Origin: a virus
Direction: 5' to 3' (one strand)
IMG/VR virus record: IMGVR_UViG_3300033552_000011
Span: 1-53,454 of that record
Length of the DNA: 53,454 nt
The notes beneath the pieces are model-generated. The model searched no databases. It saw only the letters and a program-made list of their open reading frames with translations, and was not told where the DNA came from. Positions within the stretch are counted from its first letter, which is position 1. Each line of letters opens with the position of its first letter. The position numbers were made by a program, and so were the translations under genes. Below are positions 18,921-37,350 of this stretch, one piece after another.

Positions 18921-19658
18921 TTACGAACGGTACCAACCTTCAGCTTTCTTTTTCAGATCAGCTTCATTGAAGATTTCAGGGATCAGGTAACCGCCCTTTG
19001 CAGCAGTCAGTTTTTCAAGCGTGCGAATTCCAACAGGGTTGTCTACCGCCTCGTTGTAGAATCCAGACACCTGCTTGAAGATTTTTTGAATCGCATCATT
19101 GTCCAGCTCACCGTCGTTGTTTGAAACCTCGCGGAAGAAATCAAACTTGCCCTTGAAATACTCCTTGTTCACTTCTGATTCAGCGTAAACTTTCTTGATA
19201 AAGTCCTCGTCAACGTGGCGATCAATTGCTGCGCCGCGTGCTTTGGCTCGCTCAATTGCAACGTCTAGGTTGACATTGATAAACACCATGCCCACATCGT
19301 AGCCAACTGATTCCAAGAGACCGGCACGAGCCAGAATGTTCGACGCATCGTTTGAGGTACCGTCTACAAACAGCGGCAACATCGAGTTCAAATAGTTGAA
19401 CAGCGAAGTGCTCGTGATAGGCCGGGTGCGATCACGGAAGAACGACTTCCATGTTTCATTGTTAGAAGGCATCTTGTATTTCTTCGACAAGAACTCTGTT
19501 GCGATGTCGGTGTTTACAACCTTTGGTGAAATCGTGCCATGCAGCTTAGAAACTGTGTAGGACTTACCTGCACCAGGAATCCCTACAACGAAGAGTGCCT
19601 TGAGGATACCCTTGTCGTTAATTGATTCGTTCATCATGAATTCTTTGAATGTGATCAT
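18921..19658 (-). CDS. Zeta-toxin-like P-loop kinase with capsid-targeting-like leader
   Basis: A 245-residue P-loop kinase: 'FVVGIPGAGKSYTV' (P-loop at 26-33), 'VVNTDIATEF' after the second strand, 'LPLFVDGTSND' and a basic lid segment 'AIERAKARGAAIDRH'. This layout matches zeta-toxin/polynucleotide-kinase-type ATPases. The N-terminus 'MITFKEFMMNES' matches the leader of the paralogous family next to it and offers a protease-like site (M-x-N-E|S, less canonical). The start overlaps the upstream gene's stop by one base. If the leader acts as in T4 internal proteins, the kinase would be packaged and injected. Substrate unknown. Confidence 0.75.
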   Translation of the reverse strand: MITFKEFMMNESINDKGILKALFVVGIPGAGKSYTVSKLHGTISPKVVNTDIATEFLSKKYKMPSNNETWKSFFRDRTRPITSTSLFNYLNSMLPLFVDGTSNDASNILARAGLLESVGYDVGMVFINVNLDVAIERAKARGAAIDRHVDEDFIKKVYAESEVNKEYFKGKFDFFREVSNNDGELDNDAIQKIFKQVSGFYNEAVDNPVGIRTLEKLTAAKGGYLIPEIFNEADLKKKAEGWYRS

Positions 19659-20536
19659 TACTTTGCTTTCAACTTTTTAACTTCGGCCTTGAACTCGTCA
19701 TAGTAACGAGCTGGCACAGAAAGGTATTTACCGGAGAACCAGCACTCACGTGTCTCTCCAGGCAAATCTAAATCTTTGGATGTGATCAGCTTCGCACGCC
19801 AATCTTCTGGCGTAAGCTTCTCAGGAATTTCTGTAGCTGCGATCTGTACCAACTGCGACAGCCAGGAATCGTCGTTAGCTTCCTCAGCGAACTTGTCAGC
19901 CACCTCGTCATTGCCATTGGCTTCTGAATTGAATCGACCCCTGCCATTACTGAATACCTTCTTGATCAGCTTCAGCTTGTCAAGAATGCCCATGTGGTCA
20001 GGGAACTCTTTGTAAAGCTCAGTGCCAACAAAGATTCGGAATGCATCGTCGATCAATCCAAAAATGCCATCGATTCGAACACCATCAAAGTTGTCTGTTA
20101 CTGTGCTACGCTTGAGCACGTTCATTTGATTTAGGTCGTAGTCATCCAGCATCGCAATCTTTACCCCGTCGAACGGGAAGATCATGAGAAGGTTTGATTT
20201 GTCATCGCTCACGGTGCCGACTGCGGATTCAGCATTAGTTGAGCAGAAAATCGATTGCCGACGAGCCGGCCAACCTTTCCAGGCCGGCTGAGAGAAAACG
20301 AATTCTTGTTCTTCAGCGCTGCCACCTCGGGACGTGGATTCGCGAGTGCGGGGTACACGGGTGCGGAGTGGATGATGTTTTTCATCCCAGGCACTGCCAC
20401 TTAGCCGGCACAACGGGTTATTGATATCAGGGAATTGCGAGCAATGGTTCAGAAATTCCTTGGCAGCGGCTTCTACTGAATCGTGCTGTTGGTCTTCTTC
20501 CTCAGCTTCGTTGAGGAACTGTTTGAATGTAATCAC
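19658..20536 (-). CDS. Leader-bearing ART-like family, member A (divergent)
   Basis: 292 residues. The leader 'MITFKQFLNEAEEED' offers a cut site FLNE|A. The body keeps family landmarks: a Cys near 'NHCSQF', 'RRQSIFCST' (like RSxSI in relatives), 'LMIFPFDGVKIAML', an Asp-Leu pair, and a C-terminal 'RECWFSGKYLSV'. The usual Arg-Gly of the first motif reads Arg-Leu-Ser-Gly, and the region around it is Arg-rich, so catalytic activity is doubtful. It is ATGA-coupled to the next paralogue upstream (20533-20536). Confidence 0.72.
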   Translation of the reverse strand: MITFKQFLNEAEEEDQQHDSVEAAAKEFLNHCSQFPDINNPLCRLSGSAWDEKHHPLRTRVPRTRESTSRGGSAEEQEFVFSQPAWKGWPARRQSIFCSTNAESAVGTVSDDKSNLLMIFPFDGVKIAMLDDYDLNQMNVLKRSTVTDNFDGVRIDGIFGLIDDAFRIFVGTELYKEFPDHMGILDKLKLIKKVFSNGRGRFNSEANGNDEVADKFAEEANDDSWLSQLVQIAATEIPEKLTPEDWRAKLITSKDLDLPGETRECWFSGKYLSVPARYYDEFKAEVKKLKAK

Positions 20537-21276
20537 AAGGTGCCTTCCGTTTTTAGGCGAGTATAAAAGTTACGACGGATTGCGACACACTTGCCGCCGA
20601 TCCATAGTTCACGCTTTGTGTCAGAATAGTTGTCGATGGTTTTTGTTGTGGCTAACTCAAGCTTCAATCCTTCAGGACTGTAAGCCTTTTCCAGAGCTGC
20701 TTCAACGTTGTCCGGTGTACCGAATATTTGGATCAAACTCTCAACAATGCTTCCGCCCGAATCATCTGACATTTTCTCTTTGATAGCGTCGACGAACTCA
20801 AGGTAAGAAGACTGTGGCAAATCAAAGCTGCGCCAGATTCCGTTCCAATTGTGAATGCGATGGTCATCTTCTGAATCACCGATTTGAAAACTTGGTGTTG
20901 ACCAAAGATCATAAGCTGCGCAGACACCGATCTTTACACCGTCGTAAGGAAACACCGCATATACAGCACCGAATGCATCAGCGGTGTCTAGGTCATTTGC
21001 CAGGATGATTGACTTGCTCCGCTTCGGATATCCGAGTGACGGAAGGAAATTATCCATGATGTTGGTGTAAAAATTCGATGTGTTGGCAGACTCACGTGTT
21101 GATGCTTCACCATTCAAAAGGAAAGAATCTGAACCTGGGTTCATACCACGCCATAATGGTTCCTTCAGCTTGAGCGCGTCCCCGCAATGCTCTTTGATTA
21201 GAGCAACAGCTTCGGCAACTTCAAGTGCTGTTTTATGCGCACCCGCTTCATTCAGCAGGTATTGTTTAAATCTCAC
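20533..21276 (-). CDS. Leader-bearing ART-like family, member B
   Basis: 247 residues. Leader 'MRFKQYLLNEAGAHK' with possible cut LLNE|A. Family motifs: 'LWRGMN' (Arg43-Gly44), 'RESANTSNFYT', 'PKRSKSIILAN' (about 84-93), 'AFGAVYAVFPYDGVKIGVC', and 'RELWIGGKCVAI' with Glu223. The set Arg-Gly, a Ser-bearing strand followed by helix and Phe/Tyr-Gly, and a late Glu resembles the R-S-E layout of ADP-ribosyltransferases. It sits directly after the small-terminase gene, coupled by ATGA at both ends. Confidence 0.75.
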   Translation of the reverse strand: MRFKQYLLNEAGAHKTALEVAEAVALIKEHCGDALKLKEPLWRGMNPGSDSFLLNGEASTRESANTSNFYTNIMDNFLPSLGYPKRSKSIILANDLDTADAFGAVYAVFPYDGVKIGVCAAYDLWSTPSFQIGDSEDDHRIHNWNGIWRSFDLPQSSYLEFVDAIKEKMSDDSGGSIVESLIQIFGTPDNVEAALEKAYSPEGLKLELATTKTIDNYSDTKRELWIGGKCVAIRRNFYTRLKTEGTL

Positions 21277-21743
21277 TTGATTTCCTTTACTTCGGCATCA
21301 ATCGAAATCATACGCATGATCTCTTCTCGCGATGCAACCACGACGTTGTTCTGATTACGTCCTCCGCTGAATGGAACGAAAGCTGCTTGGCGCTTACGGT
21401 CGCCCTTGACCTTGGCACGGGTTGCAACTGCGTTCAGCGCTATGGTTAGATAGGATGCAGCAACCTCAGCATTACGAGCTGCGTAACGAGGCTCGATGAT
21501 CTGTGTGTACTCGGTCTGCTGTTGGAAGGTTTCGAGTGCAGCGTCATAGATGGCGTCGATGCGCTCATCAATAACTTTGTCATCCTCGTCCTGCTCTTCA
21601 CCCTCAGGTGGTGCAACCATCTCGGCCAGTTCACCTTCGGTTACCTGATCGTACTCTTCCAATTCCTGGCCATCCTCTTCGCGCTCGGTATTGAACAGCT
21701 CGTCAAGCGGGTTCAGAATTGGGTTTTCAGATTTCTGTTTCAT
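21273..21743 (-). CDS. 16: Terminase small subunit gp16
   Basis: gp16 regulates the gp17 motor and recognises packaging DNA. This 156-residue protein has an acidic N-terminal half ('LDELFNTEREEDGQELEEYD') and a helical central core 'YAARNAEVAASYLTIALNAV', followed by basic and polar sequence, a pattern I associate with gp16 of T4-like phages. The call also rests on synteny: it lies in the gp4-to-gp17 interval where gp16 is expected. Unusually, gp16 and gp17 are 5 kb apart, separated by inserted effector-like genes. It overlaps both neighbours by ATGA. Confidence 0.68.
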   Translation of the reverse strand: MKQKSENPILNPLDELFNTEREEDGQELEEYDQVTEGELAEMVAPPEGEEQDEDDKVIDERIDAIYDAALETFQQQTEYTQIIEPRYAARNAEVAASYLTIALNAVATRAKVKGDRKRQAAFVPFSGGRNQNNVVVASREEIMRMISIDAEVKEIK

Positions 21744-22450
21744 TTTCGTACTCCCTTTGCGTTCCGCATTACAGAGCGGTACAGCATCATGTCAACAGCA
21801 ATACATTTGCCGCCGATCCATAGTTCGTGTTCTTTGCCATCATTGTAAATCCCAGATGTGGCGGTAGTAGCAAGCTTAAACTGCTCTGCGTAAGCCTTTG
21901 CTATCGTTTCCTTGATCGTCTTAGGATCGAGGTCTAAGATGTCACGCCTACCTAACAATGCCTTGAAGTCGCTTATTAACTTTGGAAATGACTTGTCGGT
22001 AATATCGTTATCGTTGTAGAAGTTGTTCCAGCGGTTAATGGTTCTTGCCATCGACCTCGGATGATTACTCAGCGAGATTTCAGTCTCAAAAATATCTCGA
22101 CCAGGACAAACACCAATCGTTACTCCGTCATATGGAACGATCGCATATGGTTCACCGTACCCGGCAGCATACTTTCTATTCTTCCAGTTCGCGGCGATGA
22201 TTGATGCGCTTCGCTTCGGGAACTCCTTAGGCAATACCGCATCCAGGATGACCGTGTAATGGTTAGATGTATTTGCTGACTGCCGTTTGCCAGCTGCACC
22301 GTGAATCAAGCCATAGCCATTTTCAAATGGATTCATGCCACGAACGATTGGCAGTTGGCCGATCGCATCTTTACAATGCTTATTCAGTAGCTTCCAGACT
22401 TCCTCTTCAGCGAGATCGGTCTTGTACTGTTTGATTTCGCTGAGTATCAT
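21740..22450 (-). CDS. Leader-bearing ART-like family, member C
   Basis: 236 residues. I choose the ATG at 22450 because it forms an ATGA overlap with the upstream paralogue, as in the rest of the operon; an ATG five codons earlier also exists. The leader is altered ('MILSEIKQYKTDLAEEE') but still offers L-A-E|E. Motifs: 'IVRGMNPF', 'RQSANTSNHYTVILD', 'FPKRSASIIAANW', 'YGEPYAIVPYDGVTIGVC', and 'HELWIGGKCIAVD'. It is closest to member D. Confidence 0.74.
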   Translation of the reverse strand: MILSEIKQYKTDLAEEEVWKLLNKHCKDAIGQLPIVRGMNPFENGYGLIHGAAGKRQSANTSNHYTVILDAVLPKEFPKRSASIIAANWKNRKYAAGYGEPYAIVPYDGVTIGVCPGRDIFETEISLSNHPRSMARTINRWNNFYNDNDITDKSFPKLISDFKALLGRRDILDLDPKTIKETIAKAYAEQFKLATTATSGIYNDGKEHELWIGGKCIAVDMMLYRSVMRNAKGVRK

Positions 22451-23208
22451 TCTGGAGAGTACCATCGAGATTGACCCAACATATTAGGATCAGGGTTCTC
22501 CATCATGTCTTTATAGACATTCATATTTATGACCACGCACTTGCCACCAATCCAAACCTCGCGACGCTTCTTGTCGTTGTAGACTTTGGATTCATCAGTG
22601 GTAGCCAGCTTAAACGGTTTCGTATAAGCTTTAATGAACTCCTGCTTAATGGTGCCTGGGTCAAGATCCGCAAGCCAATCAGAAATTCCGCTTTCTTTTG
22701 CCCGAAGTTTTTCAAGACGTTCCATCATTTCTTCAAAACTTAGTTTGTCATTGGCGACCGAATTACGCAGGTTGTAATTCCAATCCTCAATACTTTCATT
22801 GTATCCATTAACCTCAATTCGTGTGTCCCACATATCCGAGTCCGGGCAGACACCGATCTTCACCCCATCAAACGGAATGATCGCGAACAGCCTCCCACCA
22901 TATGCAGCTGCATGACTACGGTTCGCCCAGTTGGCACAGATGATTGACCCACTGCGCTTTGGAAACTCTTTCGGCAGAACAGCATCGAGAATGACGGTGT
23001 AATAATTAGTTGTGTTGCGTGACTTACGCCCGCCAACCTCACCATGTAAAACTCCGAAGCCGCCATCGAACCCCTTCATACCACGGACGATTGGTGTTTC
23101 CAAATCCTTCAGTGCGTCTTTGCAATGCTTGTTGAGAAGTTCCCAGGCACCTTGGGCGTCTGTCTCAGTTTTATACTGGTCTTCTGCCAGATAGTCTTTG
23201 AATCTCAT
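22447..23208 (-). CDS. Leader-bearing ART-like family, member D
   Basis: 253 residues. Leader 'MRFKDYLAEDQYKT' with cut site YLAE|D. Motifs: 'IVRGMKGF', 'RKSRNTTNYYTVILD', 'FPKRSGSIICANW', 'YGGRLFAIIPFDGVKIGVC' and 'REVWIGGKCVVIN'. The stretch 'TVILDAVLPKEFPKRS' is identical with member C, pointing to a fairly recent duplication. It is ATGA-coupled to gp4 upstream (23205-23208) and to member C downstream. Confidence 0.75.
   Translation of the reverse strand: MRFKDYLAEDQYKTETDAQGAWELLNKHCKDALKDLETPIVRGMKGFDGGFGVLHGEVGGRKSRNTTNYYTVILDAVLPKEFPKRSGSIICANWANRSHAAAYGGRLFAIIPFDGVKIGVCPDSDMWDTRIEVNGYNESIEDWNYNLRNSVANDKLSFEEMMERLEKLRAKESGISDWLADLDPGTIKQEFIKAYTKPFKLATTDESKVYNDKKRREVWIGGKCVVINMNVYKDMMENPDPNMLGQSRWYSPE
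22524..22531 (-). promoter_or_regulatory. Possible internal late promoter, CATAAATA
   Basis: CATAAATA on the minus strand inside member D, 73 bases upstream of the start of member C. It matches the motif seen upstream of virion genes but is in coding sequence, so it could be chance. Confidence 0.35.
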
Positions 23209-23690
23209 GTTGCAACTTTCTTGCCGGCCTTTGCCGCAGATGTTTTATAGATTGTTTTTTCAGTCACCACGCGGAACGTAGCACCTTGGGATTCAGCAAA
23301 GATCGCAGCAGCTTTCCATTTTGCCTGGTTCACTGCGTACATCATCTTGTCCCGCTCGGACATGCCAGGTGTAAGCACTGACTCACGATACGGTTTGACC
23401 TCGATGATTTCTTTCTTGATGGCACCGTTCGCATCACGGTACAGCATGATAAAGTCTGGATAGTAGCGGGATACTTTCGGCCGGCCATTCGGATCGAGCT
23501 TGATTGGGTTTACGTACGGGATCGCCAGCTCTTCAGAACCCCAGCGGAGCACTGCATTGTTCTGATCGAGCCATTTCATAAATGTCACTTCCCAACTGGA
23601 CCTGAACATAATGTTGTGCACGTTGCCCACATACTTCTGTGGATTCTTCGGCATGAACCTACCATGCATTGATCGTTTTGTACCTGCCAT
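23205..23690 (-). CDS. 4: Head completion protein gp4 (PD-(D/E)XK nuclease-like)
   Basis: T4 gp4 (also called gp50) seals the packaged head before tail attachment. The 161-residue product matches its layout closely: 'PKNPQKYVGNVHNIMFRSSWE', 'FMKWLDQNNAVLRWGSEE', 'RYYPDFIM' and 'IIEVKPY', i.e. the E-PD-ExK pattern of a restriction-like nuclease fold. Length is near the T4 protein. It lies 12 bases downstream of the tube-initiator-like gene and is ATGA-coupled to the following effector-like gene. Confidence 0.88.
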   Translation of the reverse strand: MAGTKRSMHGRFMPKNPQKYVGNVHNIMFRSSWEVTFMKWLDQNNAVLRWGSEELAIPYVNPIKLDPNGRPKVSRYYPDFIMLYRDANGAIKKEIIEVKPYRESVLTPGMSERDKMMYAVNQAKWKAAAIFAESQGATFRVVTEKTIYKTSAAKAGKKVAT

Positions 23691-23702
23691 GGGTCTAATC
23701 CG

Positions 23703-25043
23703 TTATTTGATTGTTGTGCCAGCTGAAAGCGGGTTGTTCGGATCAGACGTGACGACCGCTTCAACAGAAGGTCTACCGGCAACATCTGAGTCCAGCACTG
23801 TTGTAACACCTGCAGGCGAAATGCTTGGTGCTTTAATCACGTTCATGTTTGTGAACGCTGCACCGGCCTGATTAACAAATCCTACGCCACCGCTTATGAA
23901 TCCTGCACCTAGATTACGCGAAGCAGCACCAACCAAGCCGCCAAGAATATTGGATGCTTGGCTACCAATGAGAGAAGCGAAACGACCGTTGCCAGCTATT
24001 GATTGCACCGTCCTGTTGATTGCAGATGATGTAATCTTCTGGGTAGCTCGGCCAAGTTGATTTGTGATGATGTTCGCGAATGGGTTGCCACCACCTTGCG
24101 GGTTGACACCGCGACCGGTTGGTGAAAAATCTACCGGAGCACCGTTGATACCTGGTGTGGTGATGTTATAGAACGGGCCGTCTGGGCCCTGCAACGGGCC
24201 GACCTGAACAATTTCCATCCAGTCATAGTCGAACTGCATGGTAACCAGGTTGGCGTCAGAACCTTCGTGTGAGAGGTCATCCAAGTCAAATGAGACCAGA
24301 CGCGCATTCAGAAAGTCAAAGATTGTTTCCTCAACTGCGGCGCCAAGTTGTGAACCCGGGTTCACATACATTTGCTTGACACGAATTGTTTGGATGACGT
24401 TACCAACTTCAGACGTGAGTGTGCCGCGGATTGCTGTGTCATTCGATTTGGCATCGTTGATCGCCGAGAAGTTCATACCGTTACCTTCTTGGATGGACAA
24501 CGGATCCGGAATACCAGTAGAACCTTCGCGACGCAGCTGACGGCGTGTGATCGGCGAATGAATCATCATGATCGCGCGGAAGAAGTTCATCACCCGGTTA
24601 CCAGTATCATCCATGAATGTCAACGTCAGTTCGCGGTGGCGAATCTTCTTGAGTACCTTCGTTCGGAAGTTGTACATGTTGATGTCGTCTTCATACTCGA
24701 AGTCGATTTTCGGGCGGTCGACCGACTTGACCATGAAGGTGAAGTCTTGCGACGCCAAGTTCGGATAAGCTGCCTTTGCTTCGGCAGTAAAGACAAACTC
24801 GACCTTGAAGAGGAACTTGAGCTTCGGGCGATAGCTTGTACCACCGGCCAGTGCCGCAGCATAGGATGAAGAATAGAATGATCCGTCGTTCCTATTGGAA
24901 GACGAGCTTGGTGGATTTGGGACACCCAACAATGGGCCCAACGTTCCGCGCGAGAATTCTTCTACAGCAGCACCAAACTTATCTGAAGCTTGACGCTCGA
25001 GTGCAATTTTGGTACTCTTTAGAATTGGGCTAATATCTGACAT
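23703..25043 (-). CDS. Tail-tube-fold baseplate protein, gp54/gp48-like
   Basis: 446 residues, starting at 25043 ('MSDISPILKSTK') behind a late promoter. The middle has a tail-tube-type fold: 'KLKFLFKVEFVFTAEA', 'DFTFMVKSVDRPKIDFEY', 'INMYNFRTKVLKKIRHRELT', 'TFMDDTGNRVMNFFR'. That pattern occurs in tube initiator or cap proteins (T4 gp54, gp48) and in gp19 itself. The C-terminal third is Gly/Ala/Asn-rich and low in complexity, suiting a flexible or trimerising tail. Which T4 equivalent it is cannot be settled by eye. Confidence 0.7.
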   Translation of the reverse strand: MSDISPILKSTKIALERQASDKFGAAVEEFSRGTLGPLLGVPNPPSSSSNRNDGSFYSSSYAAALAGGTSYRPKLKFLFKVEFVFTAEAKAAYPNLASQDFTFMVKSVDRPKIDFEYEDDINMYNFRTKVLKKIRHRELTLTFMDDTGNRVMNFFRAIMMIHSPITRRQLRREGSTGIPDPLSIQEGNGMNFSAINDAKSNDTAIRGTLTSEVGNVIQTIRVKQMYVNPGSQLGAAVEETIFDFLNARLVSFDLDDLSHEGSDANLVTMQFDYDWMEIVQVGPLQGPDGPFYNITTPGINGAPVDFSPTGRGVNPQGGGNPFANIITNQLGRATQKITSSAINRTVQSIAGNGRFASLIGSQASNILGGLVGAASRNLGAGFISGGVGFVNQAGAAFTNMNVIKAPSISPAGVTTVLDSDVAGRPSVEAVVTSDPNNPLSAGTTIK

Positions 25044-25070
25044 GTTTTGCATCCACAATAGTGATTCCTC

Positions 25071-25078
25071 TATTTATG
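25071..25078 (-). promoter_or_regulatory. T4-type late promoter, CATAAATA
   Basis: CATAAATA on the minus strand, 28 bases upstream of the start at 25043. It heads the long coupled run tube-initiator, gp4, members D and C, gp16, members B and A, kinase. Confidence 0.75.
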
Positions 25079-25098
25079 GGTATCGGCCAACAAACTTG

Positions 25099-25127
25099 TG
25101 TGCATAGTCGCGAAATGCAGGTATAAT
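25099..25127 (+). promoter_or_regulatory. Early promoter on plus strand (TGTGCA-N17-TATAAT)
   Basis: TGTGCA (25099-25104), 17 bases, TATAAT (25122-25127), then CTATCAAC. It is the same motif as the minus-strand early promoters and drives the two plus-strand genes that follow. Confidence 0.82.
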
Positions 25128-25152
25128 TCTTCTATCAACTCAGGAGACACAA

Positions 25153-25458: not shown

Positions 25459-25466
25459 GGATAATC

Positions 25467-25721: not shown

Positions 25722-25725
25722 TAAA

Positions 25726-25745
25726 AATGGCCCCGAAGGGCCATT
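25726..25745. terminator. Bidirectional hairpin terminator
   Basis: An 8-bp stem AATGGCCC / GGGCCATT with loop CGAA (UUCG when transcribed from the minus strand). The minus-strand side is followed by TTTATTAG, giving an intrinsic terminator after gp19; it also separates the convergent plus-strand early genes. Confidence 0.82.
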
Positions 25746-25764
25746 GAACTTTAAGCGTGGTAGC

Positions 25765-26361: not shown

Positions 26362-26399
26362 GGTTTTCTCCTTTTGTATTGGATGAGCTTTTCAGAAAC

Positions 26400-26407: not shown

Positions 26408-26451
26408 GATTAGCATCAAAAAATGGGCTAAACTTTTGAGGGGCCTAATAA

Positions 26452-26471: not shown

Positions 26472-26473
26472 GT

Positions 26474-28643: not shown

Positions 28644-29828
28644 TCACTTTAGGTTGAAAGCTTTCATGAAAGCTTTCAAGGCGTTCTGTTCGGTTTCGTT
28701 GTCAAACATAGTTTTTGCTTTTTCAAAAGCATCAGGCACATGTTTATGAATTTTGTTCAGCATTGTCTTGAACTCAGCAATCATTTTTGTAGATATGTTG
28801 GGTTGCTTTTGGTAGATCAATTTACCCATCCAGTACATGGCAGTGTACAATGCCTGTTTGGCGTCTGTCCCATCCTCAACAGCATGTTCCAATCTACCCC
28901 AGACTGCGCCGCCCGCCTGAGAACTGATAAACGTTTGCAAGGTATCTCGTGGGTTGGCACCAACATCATCTTGCTTTTTGGTCTGGCTTGCACCAAACAA
29001 CTTCGCAAGCTTCTTCAGGTATTCTTGCTTCTCAGCTTCCGGATCACATGCCAGTTCCAGGATTGTGAGGAAGCGACCAACGTCGTCGGTAACCTGGTTC
29101 AATTTCTTGTGGTAGTCAGTGTTGCCTGCAGTACGGAATTCCAGGTAGCCAGCATCCAGTTTCATTAGGTTGACGGTACGGTACTTCATTTTCTTGAGAG
29201 CTGATCCGGCCATTGCCTTAAGCATCGATGCACTCTCTGGCTTGCTGGCATATTCTGACAGAGCTGCCATCAGGTCAGCACGGTGTTCCTGGGCATATGT
29301 GTTCAGCTTGCGATCGTAGGACTTTAGCACGTGTGCTTCGCCCATGAACAGGATCAGCTTGAGCGGATCGAGCTTTTCTTTGATGTCAGGGATCGACAGG
29401 TTCAAGTGCAGACCTGTTGTCGAGTTGGTAACCACTTCGTGCTTGACCATCCATTTGAACAACATCTTCAGGTCGCCCAGCGAGTCTTCGACTGGGTCTG
29501 GTGGGGAGATGATTTCAATTCCGCAGCCCAGTCCACCCTCTTGAATCGAACCGTCGGGAACGATTCGCCATTGGTTGATGCTCTCGCCGTTGACTCGCAC
29601 GGAATAGCCCAGCAAATCTTCGAGGGAATCTTTGGCCATCTTTGCTGTGGCCATGAAGTCGCCCTTGCTTGAATCCTGTGTGCTGACAATGAGCAGGTCC
29701 GATTCCTCTGGAACCCACATCTCTAGTTCGAAGCCCATCTTCGCAGAACCAGACATGCGTTCGATTGCTGCGGCGAATACGCCCTTGGACATGCGTGCTT
29801 CGTCCAGAAATTGTTTGAATGTAATCAT
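28644..29828 (-). CDS. Amidoligase-like enzyme with capsid-targeting-like leader
   Basis: 394 residues. Leader 'MITFKQFLDEARMSK' with cut site FLDE|A. The body matches the amidoligase group of ATP-dependent carboxylate-amine ligases (glutamate-cysteine ligase fold): 'MGFELEMWVP' (Glu34, Glu36), 'WRIVPDGSI' (Asp91), 'GIEIISPPDPVE' (Glu104), 'TGLHLNLSI' (His140) and 'YLEFRTAGNTDY' (Glu229-Arg231). All expected metal and substrate landmarks appear intact. Such enzymes form peptide or amide bonds; the substrate is unknown. With the leader, a packaged and injected ligase is the inference. It is ATGA-coupled to the paralogue upstream. Confidence 0.75.
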   Translation of the reverse strand: MITFKQFLDEARMSKGVFAAAIERMSGSAKMGFELEMWVPEESDLLIVSTQDSSKGDFMATAKMAKDSLEDLLGYSVRVNGESINQWRIVPDGSIQEGGLGCGIEIISPPDPVEDSLGDLKMLFKWMVKHEVVTNSTTGLHLNLSIPDIKEKLDPLKLILFMGEAHVLKSYDRKLNTYAQEHRADLMAALSEYASKPESASMLKAMAGSALKKMKYRTVNLMKLDAGYLEFRTAGNTDYHKKLNQVTDDVGRFLTILELACDPEAEKQEYLKKLAKLFGASQTKKQDDVGANPRDTLQTFISSQAGGAVWGRLEHAVEDGTDAKQALYTAMYWMGKLIYQKQPNISTKMIAEFKTMLNKIHKHVPDAFEKAKTMFDNETEQNALKAFMKAFNLK

Positions 29829-30535
29829 AGGTCTACAAAAGCTTTCTTTATGACGCCGAGTTGCAGGTCACGGTTTTCTTTATCGTTGGCCAGCGGAATG
29901 ACGTAGTACTCGTCGCAATCAATCATGATCTCAACTGCCATACCTACAGCCTTGTCGAATCCGTTGATGGTGTAACCGAGACCCTTCATCAGTTCACCGA
30001 TTGCCTCAACATCTGGCTTACCGTCTGAACCAACGAACTCTTTTTGAAGTTCACCAGGTGTACCGTGATCTTTCGTATTTGTCTGCAATTCTTTTCGAAT
30101 CACATCATCATACAGGTCGGCAACTTTTGGTGACCAGACATAGGTGAACTTACCGATTGGCAATATGACTGCGACCTGCCCATACTCATATGCGTTTTCA
30201 CGGCCAGCCTCACCAAAGCAAAACACCGCCTGTGAGCGGGCACGGATGCCCATCTCTTCTTCAAACCAATCATCAATGATTCCATGGATTGCTTTCGCGG
30301 TATCCATTGGCTTGCGTTCTTTGCGAACAGTCTTCTTGAACACATTGAAAGTAACGCCTGGGAATTTCTCACCAAGCGACATGTTGCCAACCAGCGAACC
30401 AGCGCCGTTCATGCCCCGGACTATCAGGCCATTCTGTTGGGATCGTTTGAAGAAGTCAGAACAGTCGCCACGAAGCAATCCCTCGAAGGTCAAGTTTTCT
30501 TTTTCCTCTAGGAACTGCTTAAACGTTTTAGTCAT
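29825..30535 (-). CDS. Leader-bearing ART-like family, member E
   Basis: 236 residues. Leader 'MTKTFKQFLEEKENL' with cut site FLEE|K. It belongs to the second sub-lineage: 'LIVRGMNG' (Arg40), 'KKTVRKERKPMD', 'IRARSQAVFCFGEAG', 'YGQVAVILPIGKFTYVWSP', 'DLYDD' and a late 'EIMIDCDEYYVIP'. The motif order is the same as in members B-D, so the two sub-lineages are homologous. It overlaps its upstream neighbour by 8 bases and the amidoligase-like gene by ATGA. Confidence 0.74.
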   Translation of the reverse strand: MTKTFKQFLEEKENLTFEGLLRGDCSDFFKRSQQNGLIVRGMNGAGSLVGNMSLGEKFPGVTFNVFKKTVRKERKPMDTAKAIHGIIDDWFEEEMGIRARSQAVFCFGEAGRENAYEYGQVAVILPIGKFTYVWSPKVADLYDDVIRKELQTNTKDHGTPGELQKEFVGSDGKPDVEAIGELMKGLGYTINGFDKAVGMAVEIMIDCDEYYVIPLANDKENRDLQLGVIKKAFVDL

Positions 30536-31819: not shown

Positions 31820-31836
31820 GGTAAAAGCTCCGTGTG

Positions 31837-32466
31837 TTATTTGAATCCTAGAGATTTTTTAAGCTCTTCCTCGTATTCAATCGGGAAAGCATAGTATTTA
31901 TCGCACTTGATCATGATCTCACATTCATTGCGAACGGCAGAATCCAGACCAGTCTTTCGGTATTCTTGTTTATTCAGCCACTCGATAATGTCGGCTGGCT
32001 CACCTTCGTCTAGCTCTTCACCTTGGAGGTCAACATACAAATCGCTGATGTTAACCGACCACACATATTGAAATTCACCAATCGGGAAAATAATATGAGG
32101 ATCGCCGTATTCTTCGATGATCTCTGAAGAAGAATTTTCACCAAAGGCAAAGAGGCCTTCGGTACGCGCTTTGAACCCAAACTTATCATCGAACCAAGCG
32201 TTAAGTGTGCGATGGGTTTCGCTCGACATATCGCGTGGTTCACGATCAGAACGTACAGTTTTCCTGATGTACACCAGCTTGTTGCCTTCAGAATCTGTTA
32301 CATGCAGATCACCGGAAAGATGACTGTGTTTAATACCACGGAACAGGAAACCATTGCGGTCGGAGTCCCTAATGAACTGGCCGCAATCGCGTTCGATCAT
32401 CGTGCGAACTTCGTTGTCATACGACTTTGGATCGGCTTCGTTCAGGAATTGTTTGAATGTTTTCAC
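31837..32466 (-). CDS. Leader-bearing ART-like family, member F
   Basis: 209 residues. Leader 'MKTFKQFLNEADPKS' with cut site FLNE|A, very close to the T4 internal-protein leader. Second sub-lineage motifs: 'FLFRGIKHS', 'RKTVRSDREPRDM', 'FKARTEGLFAFGEN', 'YGDPHIIFPIGEFQYVWS', 'DLYVD' and 'ECEIMIKCDKYYAFP'. It is ATGA-coupled to member G upstream and ends 17 bases before the gp15 start. Confidence 0.75.
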   Translation of the reverse strand: MKTFKQFLNEADPKSYDNEVRTMIERDCGQFIRDSDRNGFLFRGIKHSHLSGDLHVTDSEGNKLVYIRKTVRSDREPRDMSSETHRTLNAWFDDKFGFKARTEGLFAFGENSSSEIIEEYGDPHIIFPIGEFQYVWSVNISDLYVDLQGEELDEGEPADIIEWLNKQEYRKTGLDSAVRNECEIMIKCDKYYAFPIEYEEELKKSLGFK

Positions 32467-33104
32467 GGGGTCATATCCAGTGCTAGTTTGATGGCATGCT
32501 CGCCGGCAAGTTCAAATGCGTAGTAACGATCGCATTGGACCATAACTTCATTTTTCATGTTCACGGCTTTGTGTAGGTGAGAGTCGATGTACTTGGCGGA
32601 GTTTAGAAACTCAATGAGCTTTTCTTCATCTCCATCTTTTAACTTGTTAATATCTTGGCCAATCTCGTTGTAAAGATCCTTGACAATCGGGGACCAAACG
32701 TAATTGAATTCACCAATTGGAAAGACTGCGCATGGTACACCGTACTGACGCAGGAGATTTTTGCCGGTCTCACCCAGGCAGAACATTGTCTGCGAGCGAG
32801 CACCGAAGCCGAATTTCTTTTTGAACCAGTTGTCCATGATCTGGTGTTGCTGCCGTTGGCTGTCTTTCGGCTTGCGATCTTGCCGAACAGTCTTCTCCCA
32901 GTAAATGAGGTCGTGTTCACGAGGTGAATCTACGCCGGCTCTAATTGACAGAGCTGTATCAATAGGAATTCCGCCTTCGGAAACACCTCGATACAGGAGA
33001 CCATGTTGTTTCGACTCTTGCAGGAAAGGTTTGCAGTCGCGCTCGACCAGTTCCCTGAACGTGATGGCTTCTTCTTCGGTGATAAATTGTTTGAATGTAA
33101 TCAT
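32463..33104 (-). CDS. Leader-bearing ART-like family, member G
   Basis: 213 residues. Leader 'MITFKQFITEEEAIT' with cut site FITE|E. Motifs: 'LLYRGVSEG', 'EKTVRQDRKPKDSQ', 'FGARSQTMFCLGETG', 'YGVPCAVFPIGEFNYVWSP', 'DLYNE', 'KNEVMVQCDRYYAFE'. Closest to members F and H, forming a three-gene tandem between gp14 and gp15. It overlaps member H by one base and F by four. Confidence 0.75.
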   Translation of the reverse strand: MITFKQFITEEEAITFRELVERDCKPFLQESKQHGLLYRGVSEGGIPIDTALSIRAGVDSPREHDLIYWEKTVRQDRKPKDSQRQQHQIMDNWFKKKFGFGARSQTMFCLGETGKNLLRQYGVPCAVFPIGEFNYVWSPIVKDLYNEIGQDINKLKDGDEEKLIEFLNSAKYIDSHLHKAVNMKNEVMVQCDRYYAFELAGEHAIKLALDMTP

Positions 33105-33724
33105 TATGTTTTGCCAGTCGTTAGTGACTCTCGTAGCAGCGTTGCGTATTCCATAGGGAACGCATAGTAGCTGCTACATTGGACCATGATCTCATTACGA
33201 CCACGACATGCGTGCTGCAAATCCGTTGTTTGGTAACCAGCGCCTCCCAACCATTTGGTAATCTTTTCTTCCTCGTATTCATCCATGACGTTATACATGT
33301 CCTCAACATGTTCTGACCAAACGTATTTGATATCACCAATTGGGAAGATAATGCAGGGTGTTCCATAATGAGAAAGTTCATTACGATGAAGTCCAGCACC
33401 GGCTGCGAACACACAATTTGTGCGGGCACGGATGCCGAACTTTTCATTGAACCAATCATCAACAATGGTAGTGCGCTTCCTGGACATGTCCTTCGGTTTA
33501 CGATCGGTGCGAACAGCCTTCTTGATGAAGTCCATGTTGGTACCATCGTAAGCCTCGGTCGATCCAGGAATACCAGTATCAATCTTGACACCACGATACA
33601 GGAATCCACCCTTGGCTTCTTTTAAGAACGGGCCGCAATGCTTCTCGAGAAGAATCTTCACCTCTGCAGGTGGTTCTTCTCCAAGAAATTTGTCCTCACC
33701 TAGATATTGCTTAAATGTTATCAT
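33104..33724 (-). CDS. Leader-bearing ART-like family, member H
   Basis: 206 residues. The start at 33724 gives the leader 'MITFKQYLGEDKFLGEE' with two possible cut sites (YLGE|D and FLGE|E) and an ATGA overlap with gp14; a longer frame would lie inside gp14. Motifs: 'FLYRGVKID', 'KKAVRTDRKPKDM', 'IRARTNCVFAAGAG', 'YGTPCIIFPIGDIKYVWSE', 'DMYN' and 'RNEIMVQCSSYYAFP'. Confidence 0.75.
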   Translation of the reverse strand: MITFKQYLGEDKFLGEEPPAEVKILLEKHCGPFLKEAKGGFLYRGVKIDTGIPGSTEAYDGTNMDFIKKAVRTDRKPKDMSRKRTTIVDDWFNEKFGIRARTNCVFAAGAGLHRNELSHYGTPCIIFPIGDIKYVWSEHVEDMYNVMDEYEEEKITKWLGGAGYQTTDLQHACRGRNEIMVQCSSYYAFPMEYATLLRESLTTGKT

Positions 33725-35655
33725 GGAACCTTCTTGCTGGATGGATTCATTGTCGTATCCATATTCAGAATTTGAAGCTGACTTGGACGGTGCGCAGAAC
33801 GCTGGGCACGGCGATCGGTCTCGACATAAATCCAATCGTTCTTGACGATTGAGAATTTGTACAGGCGAGCTGGCAGGTTGAGCTGAGGCGCGTACTCGAG
33901 GCGGTAGTATTCTCCGTCTTTAGCTTTTGCAGCATCAGGTAACTTGTCGAAGCCAGTCGTGTATGGTGCTCCATCTGGCGGCAAGCCATCCTCGACATAC
34001 AGGCCAACACCGTCGTACGAACCTGGTTGGCGGAAGCGATTGGTACCAGAGGCTTGTTCGCGAACGTTCGTTCCCTTTTCTGGAACAGCGCGAACTGCTT
34101 CGGCTTCGTTTGCCTCGGATGCTGTGAGTCCCATCGTTTCGATTTGTTCAACACCTTCAAAGAATCGGAAGTCGTCAGTGATGTATTTCTGTGTGTCGGC
34201 AGTGCCGAGCAAATCGCGGTGCTCTTGACCTGGAATAAGTTGTTGAGCCTGGAAACGGTAGATGATCGGCTTCCAACCAGAGGTGAAACCATCTGCTGCC
34301 CAACCGCCGTCAGTTACTTCCAGGAACTTACGCACTGGACGGAGGTGTTGATCCCACTGCATTTCAGATGGGACTTCAAGGATGTCTCCAATTACGATTG
34401 GCCGACCAAGTGCTCGCACCATGTCAGCGAAGGATACAGTGAACGAATAGATGTCAGCCATCTGGAAACCGAACTTTGACAGGTCAGACACAGCGTCAAA
34501 TGGGGTGTACTGTGCTTTGAGCTGGATAGATGATTTCGCGTAGTCGCGATCACGGTTCTCCATGAAGAGCGGGTCTTGGATATCGTCAAGCGTTGTTGCC
34601 TGGTAATCGAATAGCTCGAGCTTGTCTACAACCCATGGCGAACCATTGCTGGCACCAGCGAATGATGTAGGTACAATCCTCCAGTAACGGGATGCAGCTG
34701 ACTGCTTGATACGAATCAACGCACCTATTGCTGCATTCGGCAGGTTGACAACGTCAACACGCTTCCATTCCATCTCGACAGGAACCATGAACGAATCGCC
34801 AGATTGGAACGGCACAGCACCTGGGTTGATTGTGAACGAGCCTTCTGGCGAATTGAATTGAGCGCCGACAGTTGCTTCACCAAGGATCGATGTGCCTTCG
34901 TTCGACGTGTACATGACCGTAAACTTCATCGGCGAATCAGCAAACAGCATGAATGATCCTGGCCGGGAACCAAAGCCTGGGCGGAATCCACCCACGGCGC
35001 CGTCGCCGCCCTGAGCATTGGACGTTGTGATCTTGAACTGGTTGACTGTAAAGTTTCCGTCGGAGCGGTCAACACGAACCTGCATCGCACGAGTAGTCGC
35101 ATCCGGTCCTTGCTGGATACGGAAACTTGTGATGTGTTGGGAGTCAGGTGCACCAGGTGCGTTCTCAGGTTCGCCGAAAGAAGTCTTGCGAATACCAAAA
35201 TCATAACCAATATACGCGGGTCCTTGCAGAACGTCTAGGCCAGTGGTTGAGCTGACCCAACTGTCGGCCAGCTCGTCAAACACATTGGCAACATCTCCGC
35301 TCGACCCGATTGCGTGGCCAGCACCAACGAGGTCAATCAGCTTGCCCTGCTCGTGGTTACCCAGGAGCTTGAACACATTGACTGGCGCGCCAGAGATGTT
35401 CAGTGCTTCAGCAGCAACTGCATCCTGGTAAGTGTTCTCAGTGTATGCACAAACGTCTTGCGAAAGCCTGTACGTACCAACGCAGAATTCCGGAGGCACG
35501 TAGGTTCCACCGCCACCAGGCGGTATGACTGCGCCAGGGCCAAGTGGTGGGGCATAAGGCAGGCCCGAGTTAGGGGTCACCGGATTGTTGAAGGAGCCTG
35601 CAGCATCCAGGCATTCTTCAAGTGTAGTTCGTTTTGGTGGTAGTGGTGTAGTCAT
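33721..35655 (-). CDS. 14: Neck protein gp14-like, enlarged
   Basis: A 644-residue virion protein placed where T4 gp14 lies (between gp13 and gp15). The region about 405-500 ('LKAQYTPFDAVSDLSKFGF', 'IYSFTVSFADMVRALGRPIV', 'GDILEVPSEM', 'KPIIYRFQAQQL') resembles the core of gp14 neck proteins. T4 gp14 is only 256 residues, so about 350 residues are extra, including a Pro/Gly-rich start and a beta module ('FTVMYTSNEGTSILGEATVG') like those in the sheath. The assignment rests on synteny plus this core. It is translated immediately after member I. Confidence 0.65.
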   Translation of the reverse strand: MTTPLPPKRTTLEECLDAAGSFNNPVTPNSGLPYAPPLGPGAVIPPGGGGTYVPPEFCVGTYRLSQDVCAYTENTYQDAVAAEALNISGAPVNVFKLLGNHEQGKLIDLVGAGHAIGSSGDVANVFDELADSWVSSTTGLDVLQGPAYIGYDFGIRKTSFGEPENAPGAPDSQHITSFRIQQGPDATTRAMQVRVDRSDGNFTVNQFKITTSNAQGGDGAVGGFRPGFGSRPGSFMLFADSPMKFTVMYTSNEGTSILGEATVGAQFNSPEGSFTINPGAVPFQSGDSFMVPVEMEWKRVDVVNLPNAAIGALIRIKQSAASRYWRIVPTSFAGASNGSPWVVDKLELFDYQATTLDDIQDPLFMENRDRDYAKSSIQLKAQYTPFDAVSDLSKFGFQMADIYSFTVSFADMVRALGRPIVIGDILEVPSEMQWDQHLRPVRKFLEVTDGGWAADGFTSGWKPIIYRFQAQQLIPGQEHRDLLGTADTQKYITDDFRFFEGVEQIETMGLTASEANEAEAVRAVPEKGTNVREQASGTNRFRQPGSYDGVGLYVEDGLPPDGAPYTTGFDKLPDAAKAKDGEYYRLEYAPQLNLPARLYKFSIVKNDWIYVETDRRAQRSAHRPSQLQILNMDTTMNPSSKKVP

Positions 35656-36492
35656 TTAATCATTCCAGTCAGGAGCATTCCAGTGTTCTTGCAGTTCTTC
35701 AAGTAGCTCTGGATATTGATCAGCCCATTCCATAATTCGTTTTGCGTCTGCTTCTTTCATGCGGCCGATAGTTGGAATGAATCCAACTTCACCCTCGATC
35801 CAGACTTCACCATCTGAGTCGTGGTTACCTACCTGTGCACCGGTCGTGTTACGAAGGAACAGGGACGGTGTCATCACAGCTTCCCATGCCTCGTATAGAT
35901 TGTCCAACTTGAGACGCTTCATGTACTTGTACAATGAGGCAATGGACGAGCTTTGGTCGCCCTCATCTTCTACGTGCCGTTGCACATCTTCCAAATCGAT
36001 ATTCTTTAAGGCAGATACCAATTCAGGATAGGTGTCATGCTTGTCGGTCATCAGCGATTCTGACACTTGGTTAAACTCTTCAATGGTCATATTCGAAATT
36101 TTGGTCTCGGCATCCCACAAGTCGCGGTCGCCTACAACCCCGATCTTGGCTTCATCGTGTACTATGAGGAGAGCAGCCGAACCAAAGCCTTGAGCGATGT
36201 CTCGGTCATCGGCAGCGATCCAAGCCTGTGAACGCTTCGGCCAGTCTTTGAACATGGGATGATTGTCAAACCACAATGTGTAGTTGTTGTACGTGTTGGC
36301 GCTTTTGCGAGGCAAGCCACCAAGCGATGACCCAAGACGCAGACCTTTCTCGCCATCGCCAGATCCGCCGCGATACAGGAACTTCGGTCCAGACATATAC
36401 ACTTTCGCGTTTGTGTCCGCCCACTTGATGAAGGCTTCTACGCCGACGACGGCAGTGCGTGATTCAGAAAGGAATTGTTTAAAAGTCTGCAT
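35656..36492 (-). CDS. Leader-bearing ART-like family, member I
   Basis: 278 residues. Leader 'MQTFKQFLSESRTAV' with cut site FLSE|S. First sub-lineage motifs: 'KFLYRGGSGDG', 'RKSANTYNNYTLWFD', 'WPKRSQAWIAADDRD', 'GFGSAALLIVHDEAKIGVV', 'RDLWD' and 'GEVWIEGEVGFIP' in place of EVWIGGKC. Longer than members B-D because of a helical insertion ('EDVQRHVEDEGDQSSSIASL'). It abuts gp14 downstream and member J upstream without spacing. Confidence 0.74.
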   Translation of the reverse strand: MQTFKQFLSESRTAVVGVEAFIKWADTNAKVYMSGPKFLYRGGSGDGEKGLRLGSSLGGLPRKSANTYNNYTLWFDNHPMFKDWPKRSQAWIAADDRDIAQGFGSAALLIVHDEAKIGVVGDRDLWDAETKISNMTIEEFNQVSESLMTDKHDTYPELVSALKNIDLEDVQRHVEDEGDQSSSIASLYKYMKRLKLDNLYEAWEAVMTPSLFLRNTTGAQVGNHDSDGEVWIEGEVGFIPTIGRMKEADAKRIMEWADQYPELLEELQEHWNAPDWND

Positions 36493-37350
36493 TTAATCGT
36501 CCGCGCCTTTGCGGTTCCATTGTGCTGTGAGTTGTTTTGACAACTCCTCGTTTTTATCTTTCAACCATTCAGTCAAAAGCACTTTGTCTTCTTCGCTTAT
36601 TTGATTCCTGTCAAGTGAAATGAATCCGCATTCACCTTCGATCCAAACCTCAACGCTACCACTCGAATCGATGTTCGCACCGGTAGTCAGGCCGAAAATC
36701 TCTGGTTTGACGAGACCATTCCAAACATCCCACATGTCGTCCCAATTTCTCTTGTCCATCTCTTTGAGCAAGTGCTCAAGTTGGTCCTCATAGAACGTAG
36801 CGAGATTAACCTTGTCGTCATACCATTTACGCATCAGCCTCTTTGAAACGTGCTGCAAGGCATTCTGAAGTTCAAAATACTTTTCGCTGCGGCCCATATC
36901 GAACCTGTGCAAGAGCGTTTCGGTAAGCTCATTTAAACCTAAGAGATCTATATCTGGCAAAACCTTCTTGACCCAGATATCACCAACCAAAACGTCTGCG
37001 ACCTTATCGTTGTCCTTGATGAACATCAGGTGAGGGTAACCAAAGTCGCCAGCTTTCCCCGCACTGGTTGAAGCAATGAATGACGACGAACGCTTCGGGA
37101 AGCCTTTGAATCGCGGATGACCATCAATCCACAGAGTGTAGTTGTTGGGGATACCACCAACACTCTTACGAGGCTTTGTACCAACTGAATTTCCAATTGT
37201 GATACCAGCATCGCCACTCGTGAATCCGCGATAGACATGTTGATTGCCCGCAATATACTTCGAGCAATTTGAGTTTGCCCACTTGATAAAATCTTCGGCC
37301 GATACTGCTTTGCCTCGTCCCTCGGAGAGAAACTGCTTGAATGTCTTCAT
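36493..37350 (-). CDS. Leader-bearing ART-like family, member J
   Basis: 285 residues. I choose the ATG at 37350, which overlaps the stop of the homing endonuclease as ATGA; another ATG lies two codons upstream. Leader 'MKTFKQFLSEGRGKA' with cut site FLSE|G. Motifs: 'HVYRGFTSGD', 'PRKSVGGIPNNYTLWID', 'FPKRSSSFIAST', 'FGYPHLMFIKDND', 'GDIWVKK' and 'VEVWIEGECGFIS'. Closest to member I; the pair probably arose by local duplication. Confidence 0.74.
   Translation of the reverse strand: MKTFKQFLSEGRGKAVSAEDFIKWANSNCSKYIAGNQHVYRGFTSGDAGITIGNSVGTKPRKSVGGIPNNYTLWIDGHPRFKGFPKRSSSFIASTSAGKAGDFGYPHLMFIKDNDKVADVLVGDIWVKKVLPDIDLLGLNELTETLLHRFDMGRSEKYFELQNALQHVSKRLMRKWYDDKVNLATFYEDQLEHLLKEMDKRNWDDMWDVWNGLVKPEIFGLTTGANIDSSGSVEVWIEGECGFISLDRNQISEEDKVLLTEWLKDKNEELSKQLTAQWNRKGADD

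What the first reader, a model, noticed from the sequence alone, without database searches (positions are those of the whole stretch)
18921..37350. Expanded array of about a dozen late genes sharing a T4 internal-protein-like capsid-targeting leader
Seen in sequence: members A-J, the zeta-like kinase and the amidoligase-like protein open with M-x-x-F-K-Q/E-[FY]-[LIM]-x-E followed by Ala, Ser, Asp or another small or charged residue (member C has an altered leader). Known: T4 internal proteins and Alt carry N-terminal leaders that target them into the prohead core, and the gp21 protease cuts after L/I-x-E; mature proteins are injected with DNA. Inferred: this phage packs a large, diverse cargo of effectors into its head. 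T4 has only a handful of such proteins, so this expansion within one 19-kb stretch is remarkable.
Basis: partly seen in the sequence, partly recalled or inferred. Interest (0 to 1): 0.93.

Follow-up and report, generated by a model that had tools for sequence, protein, structure and literature searches.

The report
Phage head tag on enzyme battery
A stretch of a giant phage genome holds twelve genes, eleven of which make proteins that begin with the same short tag, very like the one phage T4 uses to load proteins into its head; ten of the twelve belong to one unnamed family that looks like ADP-ribose-transferring enzymes, so the phage probably injects a whole battery of host-modifying enzymes with its DNA.

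Summary
Twelve minus-strand late genes (18921-37350) form the set; 11 carry M-x-x-F-K-Q-F/Y-L-x-E, some shifted by one residue, and 21740-22465 has an altered leader. Dinucleotide shuffles of the window give 0.02 such ORFs on average. The register equals T4 IPII/IPIII (MKTYQEFIAE), including positions 4 and 7 (targeting) and 8 and 10 (processing). The leader behaves as a sorting tag: it sits on unrelated proteins, differs between phage lineages, and resembles other leaders of its own lineage more than leaders of the same cargo subtype in other lineages (identity 0.52 versus 0.23; 0 of 1000 permutations). In one relative a conserved slot keeps the leader but holds another protein. 'Diverse cargo' needs correction: ten of twelve are paralogues of one undescribed family; the others are a zeta/AAA_33-like kinase and an amidoligase-like protein. 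Confident models of two members match, weakly, ADP-ribosyltransferase (ART) folds. Atu_ph07 has a related set with another leader; its published virion proteome found 29 virion proteins in the 46-gene block holding the array. Packaging, cleavage and ART activity remain unshown. Best reading: a T4-type head-targeting tag on an expanded, probably injected, ART-like arsenal.

The parts
18921..19658 (-). Zeta/AAA_33-like P-loop kinase with leader MITFKEFMMNE (leader codons 19626-19658)
   Evidence: Pfam Zeta_toxin 33.5 bits (cut-off 22.3), AAA_33 33.1 (27); leader
19658..20536 (-). ART-like family member, divergent type I, leader MITFKQFLNE (20507-20536), GTG start; has CRL in place of the [YVF]RG motif
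   Evidence: family HMM E 1.9e-45; leader; alignment
20533..21276 (-). ART-like family member, type I, leader MRFKQYLLNE (21247-21276), GTG start
21740..22465 (-). ART-like family member, type I, altered leader MVLSRMILSE (22436-22465)
   Evidence: family HMM E 2.5e-56; leader pattern not met
22447..23208 (-). ART-like family member, type I, leader MRFKDYLAE (23182-23208); the modelled type I protein
28644..29828 (-). Amidoligase_2-like protein, leader MITFKQFLDE (29799-29828)
   Evidence: Pfam Amidoligase_2 28.7 bits (cut-off 22); leader
29825..30535 (-). ART-like family member, type II, leader MTKTFKQFLEE (30503-30535)
31837..32466 (-). ART-like family member, type II, leader MKTFKQFLNE (32437-32466), GTG start
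32463..33104 (-). ART-like family member, type II, leader MITFKQFITE (33075-33104); the modelled type II protein
33104..33724 (-). ART-like family member, type II, leader MITFKQYLGE (33695-33724)
35656..36492 (-). ART-like family member, type I, leader MQTFKQFLSE (36463-36492)
36493..37350 (-). ART-like family member, type I, leader MKTFKQFLSE (37321-37350)

Best explanation
The leader is a T4-type capsid-targeting sequence. Late in infection the twelve proteins are made together with neck and tail proteins. The aromatic/Phe half of the leader (positions 4 and 7) binds the prohead core. A gp21-type S77 protease then cuts after the Glu of L/I-x-E, and the freed proteins stay in the head and enter the next host cell with the DNA. 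Ten of them are paralogues of an undescribed family predicted to have an ADP-ribosyltransferase fold (conserved Arg, sometimes His, in the [YVF]RG motif; an Arg in [KA]R[ST]; an invariant Glu opening a late beta strand in E-[VI]-[WM]). They would act like T4 Alt: modify host (or phage) macromolecules with NAD before phage genes are expressed, with paralogues covering different or variable targets. Shown: leader, family, lineage-tracking of the leader, cargo exchange, confident models. Inferred: packaging, cleavage, injection, ART chemistry, targets.
For: 1) Register identical to T4 IPII/IPIII MKTYQEFIAE; in T4 residues 4 and 7 target, 8 and 10 process (PMC9026906, passages). 2) Among 68 window-type family members (window included) selected for Phe4, position 8 is L/I in 67 and position 10 Glu in 63; position 9 is variable (1.17 bits) and positions 11-14 fall to 0.6-1.4 bits. 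3) 26 non-family ORFs carry the leader; Pfam over cut-off names Zeta/AAA_33 kinase, amidoligase, GNAT and AAA proteins, and ART-PolyVal below cut-off. 4) The leader tracks phage lineage, not cargo homology (without the large window-type group 0.521 vs 0.189). 5) L114: same neck-stabiliser-amidoligase-sheath-tube order at 65-69% identity (36-53% for the amidoligase pieces); where the window has three family genes it has one unrelated protein with MITFKQFLAE. 6) Relatives encode an S77 protease (6 of 9 records over cut-off; two of the six, G001 and G002, give the same hit) and a gp23 capsid (4 of 4 searched); the capsid N-termini of G001 and Atu_ph07 hold L-K-E and L-M-E. 7) In Atu_ph07 the array is CDS 53-63, inside block CDS 31-76 with 29 MS-identified virion proteins (PMC6102473, passages). 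8) ART fold: models at pLDDT 90.8 and 88.4; VIA rows are ART-like in 8 of 13 (five distinct proteins) and 5 of 5 (four distinct proteins), the top one being BC2332 (2aua), listed among ADP-ribosyltransferase SCOP families (PMC3000352, passage). 9) The Glu is invariant in 69 of 69 type I and 59 of 59 type II proteins; the motif Arg is Arg in 67 of 69 and in 52 of 59 (His in 6).
Against: No virion or cleavage data for this phage. Which of CDS 53-63 were seen in Atu_ph07 virions could not be read (supplements not available to me), and 29 of 46 does not force any of them. The window shows no protease or capsid gene. ART fold: Foldseek gave no PDB match with E below 0.001; VIA Z is only 5.9-6.8 at best, a level the tool warns may mean a common arrangement, and in the type I list two unrelated cyclic-nucleotide-binding chains (Z 3.3, 3.2) rank above DarT1 (2.9); none of the Pfam families hit by any of the 128 members scanned is an ART family by name; the profile comparison with T4 ModA/ModB is weak (type I: score 25.5, reached by 0 of 100 shuffles, but only the RG region aligns sensibly; type II: not above shuffles). 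The third Arg (R61) is not kept in type II (best column 45 of 59). One window member has an altered leader, and 48 of 163 family ORFs outside Atu_ph07 lack the strict pattern, many of them fragments or near-leaders.
Confidence: 0.6

Rival explanations
1. Packaging tag right, enzyme reading wrong: the leader loads the proteins into the head, but the ten paralogues are structural or DNA-binding internal proteins (like T4 IPIII or the phiKZ inner body), not ARTs.
For: Weak Z scores, no ART family match in Pfam, no Foldseek PDB match below 0.001.
Against: Arg and Glu columns conserved across the family, as in a catalytic site; 2aua and other ART folds head or fill the VIA lists; family domains fused to a kinase and to a GNAT domain in Atu_ph07.
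Confidence: 0.2
2. The leader is only inherited: one gene duplicated many times, and the N-terminus is conserved by descent or as part of the fold, with no targeting role.
For: Ten of twelve window proteins are one family; the models draw a short helix in the leader.
Against: Leaders of unrelated cargo in one lineage are alike while leaders of homologous cargo in different lineages differ; homologous GNATs align from about residue 21, after different leaders; the first ten residues have low pLDDT (means 54 and 61).
Confidence: 0.07
3. The tag targets the proteins to another virion place (neck, tail lumen) or to an assembly site rather than the head core.
For: Genes lie among neck, sheath and tube genes.
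Against: The match is to head-core leaders of T4 with an L/I-x-E protease site; relatives have the gp21-type protease and gp23 capsid.
Confidence: 0.08
4. The proteins are packaged counter-defence factors that block host NAD- or nuclease-based immunity rather than modify host machinery (as T4 IPI does against a restriction enzyme). Not exclusive of the best explanation.
For: Copy number and divergence of paralogues fit an arms race; IPI precedent (PMC9026906, passages).
Against: No defence target identified.
Confidence: 0.25

Closest known systems
T4 internal proteins IPII/IPIII and IPI with their capsid targeting sequence, gp21 protease
   Same: Ten-residue N-terminal leader in the same register, L/I-x-E end (IPI: start only); protease type present in relatives
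   Different: T4 has three small basic IPs; here twelve genes, larger, mostly one enzyme-like family, set among late structural genes
T4 Alt (virion ADP-ribosyltransferase), ModA, ModB
   Same: Predicted mode of action: ADP-ribosyltransferase-like; Alt is delivered from the head (PMC9026906, passages)
   Different: No sequence-family match; about ten paralogues per phage; IP-type leader. Alt itself was not compared here
Agrobacterium phage Atu_ph07 CDS 53-63 plus one distant gene
   Same: Same family, 12 ORFs in 470 of 490 kb, same head-gene type
   Different: Leader M[KR]WxQL[TN]E instead; kinase and GNAT fused to family domains
Head-packaged ARTs and polyvalent proteins proposed by the 2022 survey of viral NAD/ADPr systems (PMC9503650, passages)
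   Same: Same concept: virion-delivered ARTs in myoviruses
   Different: The words Atu_ph07, AUZ and Agrobacterium do not occur in its main text (supplements not seen)
Ejection proteins of phiKZ/SPN3US giant phages
   Same: Many cleaved proteins packed with DNA (PMC9026906, passages)
   Different: Cleavage motif S/A-x-E for phiKZ; other phage group

Membership tests
T4-type capsid targeting sequence | N-terminal about 10 residues with aromatic at 4, Phe/Tyr at 7, L/I at 8, Glu at 10 | tested here: met
   Seven of twelve genes in exact register, four shifted by one, one altered
T4-type capsid targeting sequence | Portable: same leader on unrelated proteins of one phage | tested here: met
T4-type capsid targeting sequence | Phage encodes gp21-type S77 protease | tested here: inconclusive
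   No match in the 53-kb window, a fragment; over cut-off in 6 of 9 related records
T4-type capsid targeting sequence | Cleavage after Glu and presence in the virion | not testable with these tools
   Needs mass spectrometry; only block-level data for Atu_ph07
ADP-ribosyltransferase superfamily | ART fold | tested here: inconclusive
   VIA top match 2aua Z 5.9 and 6.8, then ART chains mixed with unrelated ones in type I and alone in type II; no Foldseek PDB match below 0.001
ADP-ribosyltransferase superfamily | Conserved NAD-site Arg/His on first strand and catalytic Glu on a late strand | tested here: inconclusive
   Glu 69 of 69 and 59 of 59; motif Arg 67 of 69 and 52 of 59, His in 6; location in a NAD site not checked
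ADP-ribosyltransferase superfamily | NAD-dependent transferase activity | not testable with these tools
   No assay
Zeta_toxin / AAA_33 kinases (18921-19658) | Family HMM above curated cut-off | tested here: met
   33.5 vs 22.3 and 33.1 vs 27 bits
Zeta_toxin / AAA_33 kinases (18921-19658) | Cell-wall-precursor kinase activity with epsilon antitoxin (recalled) | not tested
   None
Amidoligase_2 (28644-29828) | Family HMM above curated cut-off | tested here: met
   28.7 vs 22 bits

The most novel reading that the evidence does not exclude
A group of T4-type jumbo phages carries a modular, lineage-specific head zip code: a short leader that evolves in step with each phage's own head core and is placed in front of whatever effector is useful. 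Through it they deliver a battery of about ten paralogous ADP-ribosyltransferases of an undescribed family, plus kinase, GNAT, amidoligase-like and other enzymes, into the host at the moment of DNA entry.
Probability: 0.55. Interest if true: 0.86.

Novelty: new variant of a known kind. Interest (0 to 1): 0.78.

Why it matters
If true, the short tag lets one read a phage's injected effectors straight from sequence: the leader differs by lineage but is shared by the cargo of a phage, so any gene with it is a candidate virion effector. It would raise the scale of head-delivered ADP-ribosyltransferases from one in T4 (Alt) to about ten per phage and give a large undescribed family (174 ORFs in the loci fetched here, fragments and near-duplicates included) a testable role. 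It would also offer a set of natural leader-scaffold pairs for packaging foreign proteins.

Tried and rejected
Pfam and PDB sequence searches for the ART-like family gave nothing useful. PF10386 (DUF2441) was tried on the recalled idea that it is the family of 2aua; it gave only sub-threshold matches outside the arrays. Foldseek against PDB gave no usable hit for either model. BFVD gave 29 matches below 0.001 for type I; those that bear names come from Atu_ph07 and uncultured phages and are called uncharacterised, zeta-toxin-domain or, once, chorismate-mutase-like.

The profile match of the family to ART-PolyVal (E 2.4e-6; 1.9e-5) is an artefact of the shared leader: with leaders cut off it falls to 0.13 and 0.094. 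I do not use it as evidence.

Megablast of the array against 50,697 phage records: no match. Scans of bacterial and archaeal genomes: none for type I with one narrow pattern, three loci for type II. One is itself an array (L116); two hold a relative with no leader pattern and were not followed.

In print: no paper in the held open library holds the strings MKTYQEFIAE, MKTFKEF, MKTFKQF or MITFKQF, and I saw no report of such an array in the listings of searches. Most subscription papers are not in that library, so absence from print is not claimed.

Limits of the counts. In one search, 4 of 123 rows (L024, L051) were dropped, and the window-type group was lumped by me on sight of its leaders. 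The contig-level version without lumping is weaker: 0.545 for same contig/other type (166 pairs) versus 0.419 for different contig/same type (3509 pairs). Starts were picked by ribosome-binding site and codon among starts near or upstream of the profile match, and the profile includes the leader. In one search I hand-picked 20 proteins; one (L041 ART-PolyVal-like) was taken from a start three codons upstream. Position counts are conditioned on Phe4, those on more. Family counts include near-identical copies from overlapping contigs; only exact duplicates were removed. Eight of the ten family members of the window were scanned against PHROGs.
Full report
What is there. The window is a 53,454-base virus record of a contractile-tailed jumbo-type phage. 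Among the 15 best phage records its sheath is closest (about 42-52% identity over 66-75% of its length) to sheaths of Stenotrophomonas, Xanthomonas, Pseudomonas and Salmonella jumbo phages. Between 18921 and 37350, on the minus strand, twelve genes stand among neck, sheath-stabiliser, tube and sheath genes. The pattern occurs in 11 of 378 window ORFs and on average in 0.02 ORFs of shuffled windows (100 shuffles, maximum 1); in the 251-kb relative G001 it occurs in 7 of 1996 ORFs, all in its own array.

What the proteins are. Ten of the twelve are one family by profile search, in two subtypes. Of the eight scanned, the six type I proteins match PHROG 12810 and the two type II proteins PHROG 11975, both of unknown function. 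With leaders removed, the subtypes still match each other (hhalign probability 98.7, E 2.5e-16). The other two are a P-loop kinase (Zeta_toxin and AAA_33 above cut-off) and an Amidoligase_2-like protein. Relatives in IMG/VR, with Atu_ph07 and the window, give 174 family ORFs, fragments and near-duplicates included.

The leader is a T4-type capsid targeting sequence by the comparisons I could make. T4 ipII and ipIII begin MKTYQEFIAE; ipI begins MKTFKEF but has no Glu at 10. The T4 review reports that only the first ten residues of IPIII are needed, that residues 4 and 7 carry targeting and residues 8 and 10 processing (PMC9026906, passages). Starts were chosen by ribosome-binding site and codon among starts near or upstream of the profile match. 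Among the 68 window-type family members (window included) with Phe at 4, residue 8 is L or I in 67, residue 10 is Glu in 63, residue 9 is nearly free (1.17 bits), and conservation falls to 1.4-0.6 bits at residues 11-14. That is the L/I-x-E site followed by a mature N-terminus free to vary. Of 95 window-type members, 75 have the strict leader at the chosen start; most of the remaining 20 show it displaced or altered.

The leader is a tag and not merely inherited. First, unrelated proteins carry it: 26 non-family ORFs in the loci. Among those tested, Pfam names kinase, amidoligase, GNAT and AAA proteins over cut-off, ART-PolyVal below cut-off, and leaves several unnamed. Second, it is lineage-specific. 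Window-type phages use M[IK]TFKQFLxE or MRFKQFLxE, Atu_ph07 uses M[KR]WxQL[TN]E, a contig binned in a Thermoplasmata assembly (L116) uses MRL[TRN]x[YF][IL] (7 of 7), and L020 uses MK[YF]xx[FY] (6 of 6). Pairs of the same lineage but different subtype share 0.52 of the leader (2278 pairs); pairs of the same subtype but different lineage share 0.23 (1205 pairs), although their bodies are more alike (0.286 versus 0.248). None of 1000 permutations reached the observed difference; without the large window-type group the values are 0.521 (34 pairs) and 0.189 (79 pairs). By contig, without lumping, the contrast is smaller (0.545 versus 0.419). Third, the GNAT of L041 and the GNAT domain of Atu_ph07 gp63 are 39% identical over L041 residues 21-113 but have different leaders. 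Fourth, phage contig L114 keeps the gene order neck, stabiliser, amidoligase, sheath, tube at 65-69% identity (36-53% for the amidoligase pieces). In the slot where the window has three family genes, its only plus-strand ORF of at least 120 aa is one of 211 aa with MITFKQFLAE, which the type II profile scores at 14.4 bits, about the same as the amidoligase and the GNAT, so by the leader alone (the last step is inferred, the alignment was not printed).

The machinery. Peptidase_S77 (gp21 type) is over cut-off in 6 of 9 related records (G001 and G002 give the same hit; three records have none or a weak one) and gp23-type capsid in 4 of 4 searched. The capsid N-termini of G001 and Atu_ph07 contain L-K-E and L-M-E before the conserved core, and their proteases open with L-S-E and L-T-E (reading of the sequence, cleavage not tested). 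The window shows neither gene, being a fragment.

Virion data. In Atu_ph07, CDS numbering fixed by the gp70 primase/helicase puts the array at CDS 53-63. [quoted passage not shown] This is what packaging would produce, but the per-gene table could not be read, so it is supporting and not decisive.

The likely activity. Models of one member of each subtype are confident (pLDDT 90.8 and 88.4). Foldseek finds no PDB match below 0.001. Of chains re-aligned by VIA-align, type I gives 2aua (Z 5.9), two unrelated cyclic-nucleotide-binding chains (3.3, 3.2), then DarT1 (2.9), OspC3, CopC and TccC3 beside further unrelated chains (8 of 13 rows ART-like, five distinct proteins); type II gives 2aua (Z 6.8), a chain of a DarTG complex (4.0), SopF and OspC3 (5 of 5 rows, four distinct proteins). 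2aua is BC2332, listed as d.166.1.6 among ADP-ribosyltransferase structure codes (PMC3000352, passage) and matched to diphtheria-type catalytic domains (PMC3024214, passage). That OspC3, CopC and SopF share the ART fold, and that the DarTG chain is DarT, is recalled. The Z values are in the range where the tool warns of chance. Conservation: the Glu (E217 type I, E186 type II) is invariant in 69 of 69 and 59 of 59; the motif Arg (R42, R39) is Arg in 67 of 69 and in 52 of 59, with His in 6 of the latter; the second Arg (R85, R103) holds in 69 of 69 and 58 of 59; R61 holds in 65 of 69 type I but has no equally conserved partner in type II. The Glu opens a late strand in both models, as the catalytic Glu does in ARTs, where Arg or His stands on the first strand (both recalled). 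A leader-free profile comparison with T4 ModA/ModB exceeds 100 of 100 shuffles for type I but is weak and aligns only the RG region sensibly; for type II it is not above shuffles. I hold the ART reading at about 0.7 and packaging at about 0.85; together about 0.6. Membership in the ART superfamily is not claimed as established.

How it would work. Made late, led into the prohead core by the leader, cut after Glu, kept with the DNA, and injected. ART-like enzymes would then modify host polymerase, ribosome, defence or RNA targets before phage transcription. Ten divergent paralogues suggest either many targets or an arms race; the kinase and amidoligase-like protein add other chemistries. All of this paragraph is inference.

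Comparison with the known. T4 IPs and Alt, and the ART packaging survey PMC9503650 (passages), establish the kind. New here, as far as I could see, are the scale (10 family genes in the window, 11 in G001, 12 in Atu_ph07), the undescribed family, and the lineage-specific leader shared by unrelated cargo. Hence 'new variant of a known kind'.

Noticed in passing
14911-17225: Two adjacent minus-strand ORFs (14911-16443 and 16440-17225) both match the ATPase part of the same large-terminase PHROGs: a duplicated or split terminase.
   Followed up: no
37347-38087: GIY-YIG (SegE-like, below cut-off) ORF abutting the first array gene; L114 8950-9705 opens with a similar sequence by eye, in another place.
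   Followed up: no
L012 9749-10750, L015 7081-8073, L055 7549-8532: Three family members have, instead of the leader, an N-terminal module of the form MPxxALKHLxKxxxxxxxxAExxW; it may be another targeting module.
   Followed up: no
L117 7531-8103 (Silanimonas assembly), L118 7926-8438 (Massilia): Family members without the leader pattern on contigs of bacterial assemblies.
   Followed up: no
L116 2888-9495: A contig binned in a Thermoplasmata archaeon assembly holds seven family genes and one other gene with a third leader type; probably a misbinned phage contig.
   Followed up: partly
21740-22465 and apparent counterparts L009 8893-9618, L011 9793-10596: The gene with the altered leader also lacks the standard leader in two relatives (MKLYEIAGQ, MKIEELILER), so the departure looks old.
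   Followed up: partly
L112 4001-4669, L113 3992-4654: Kinase relatives in Methylophilales and Pelagibacter T4-like phages have very short N-termini ending in L-Q-E-G and L-K-E-G.
   Followed up: no
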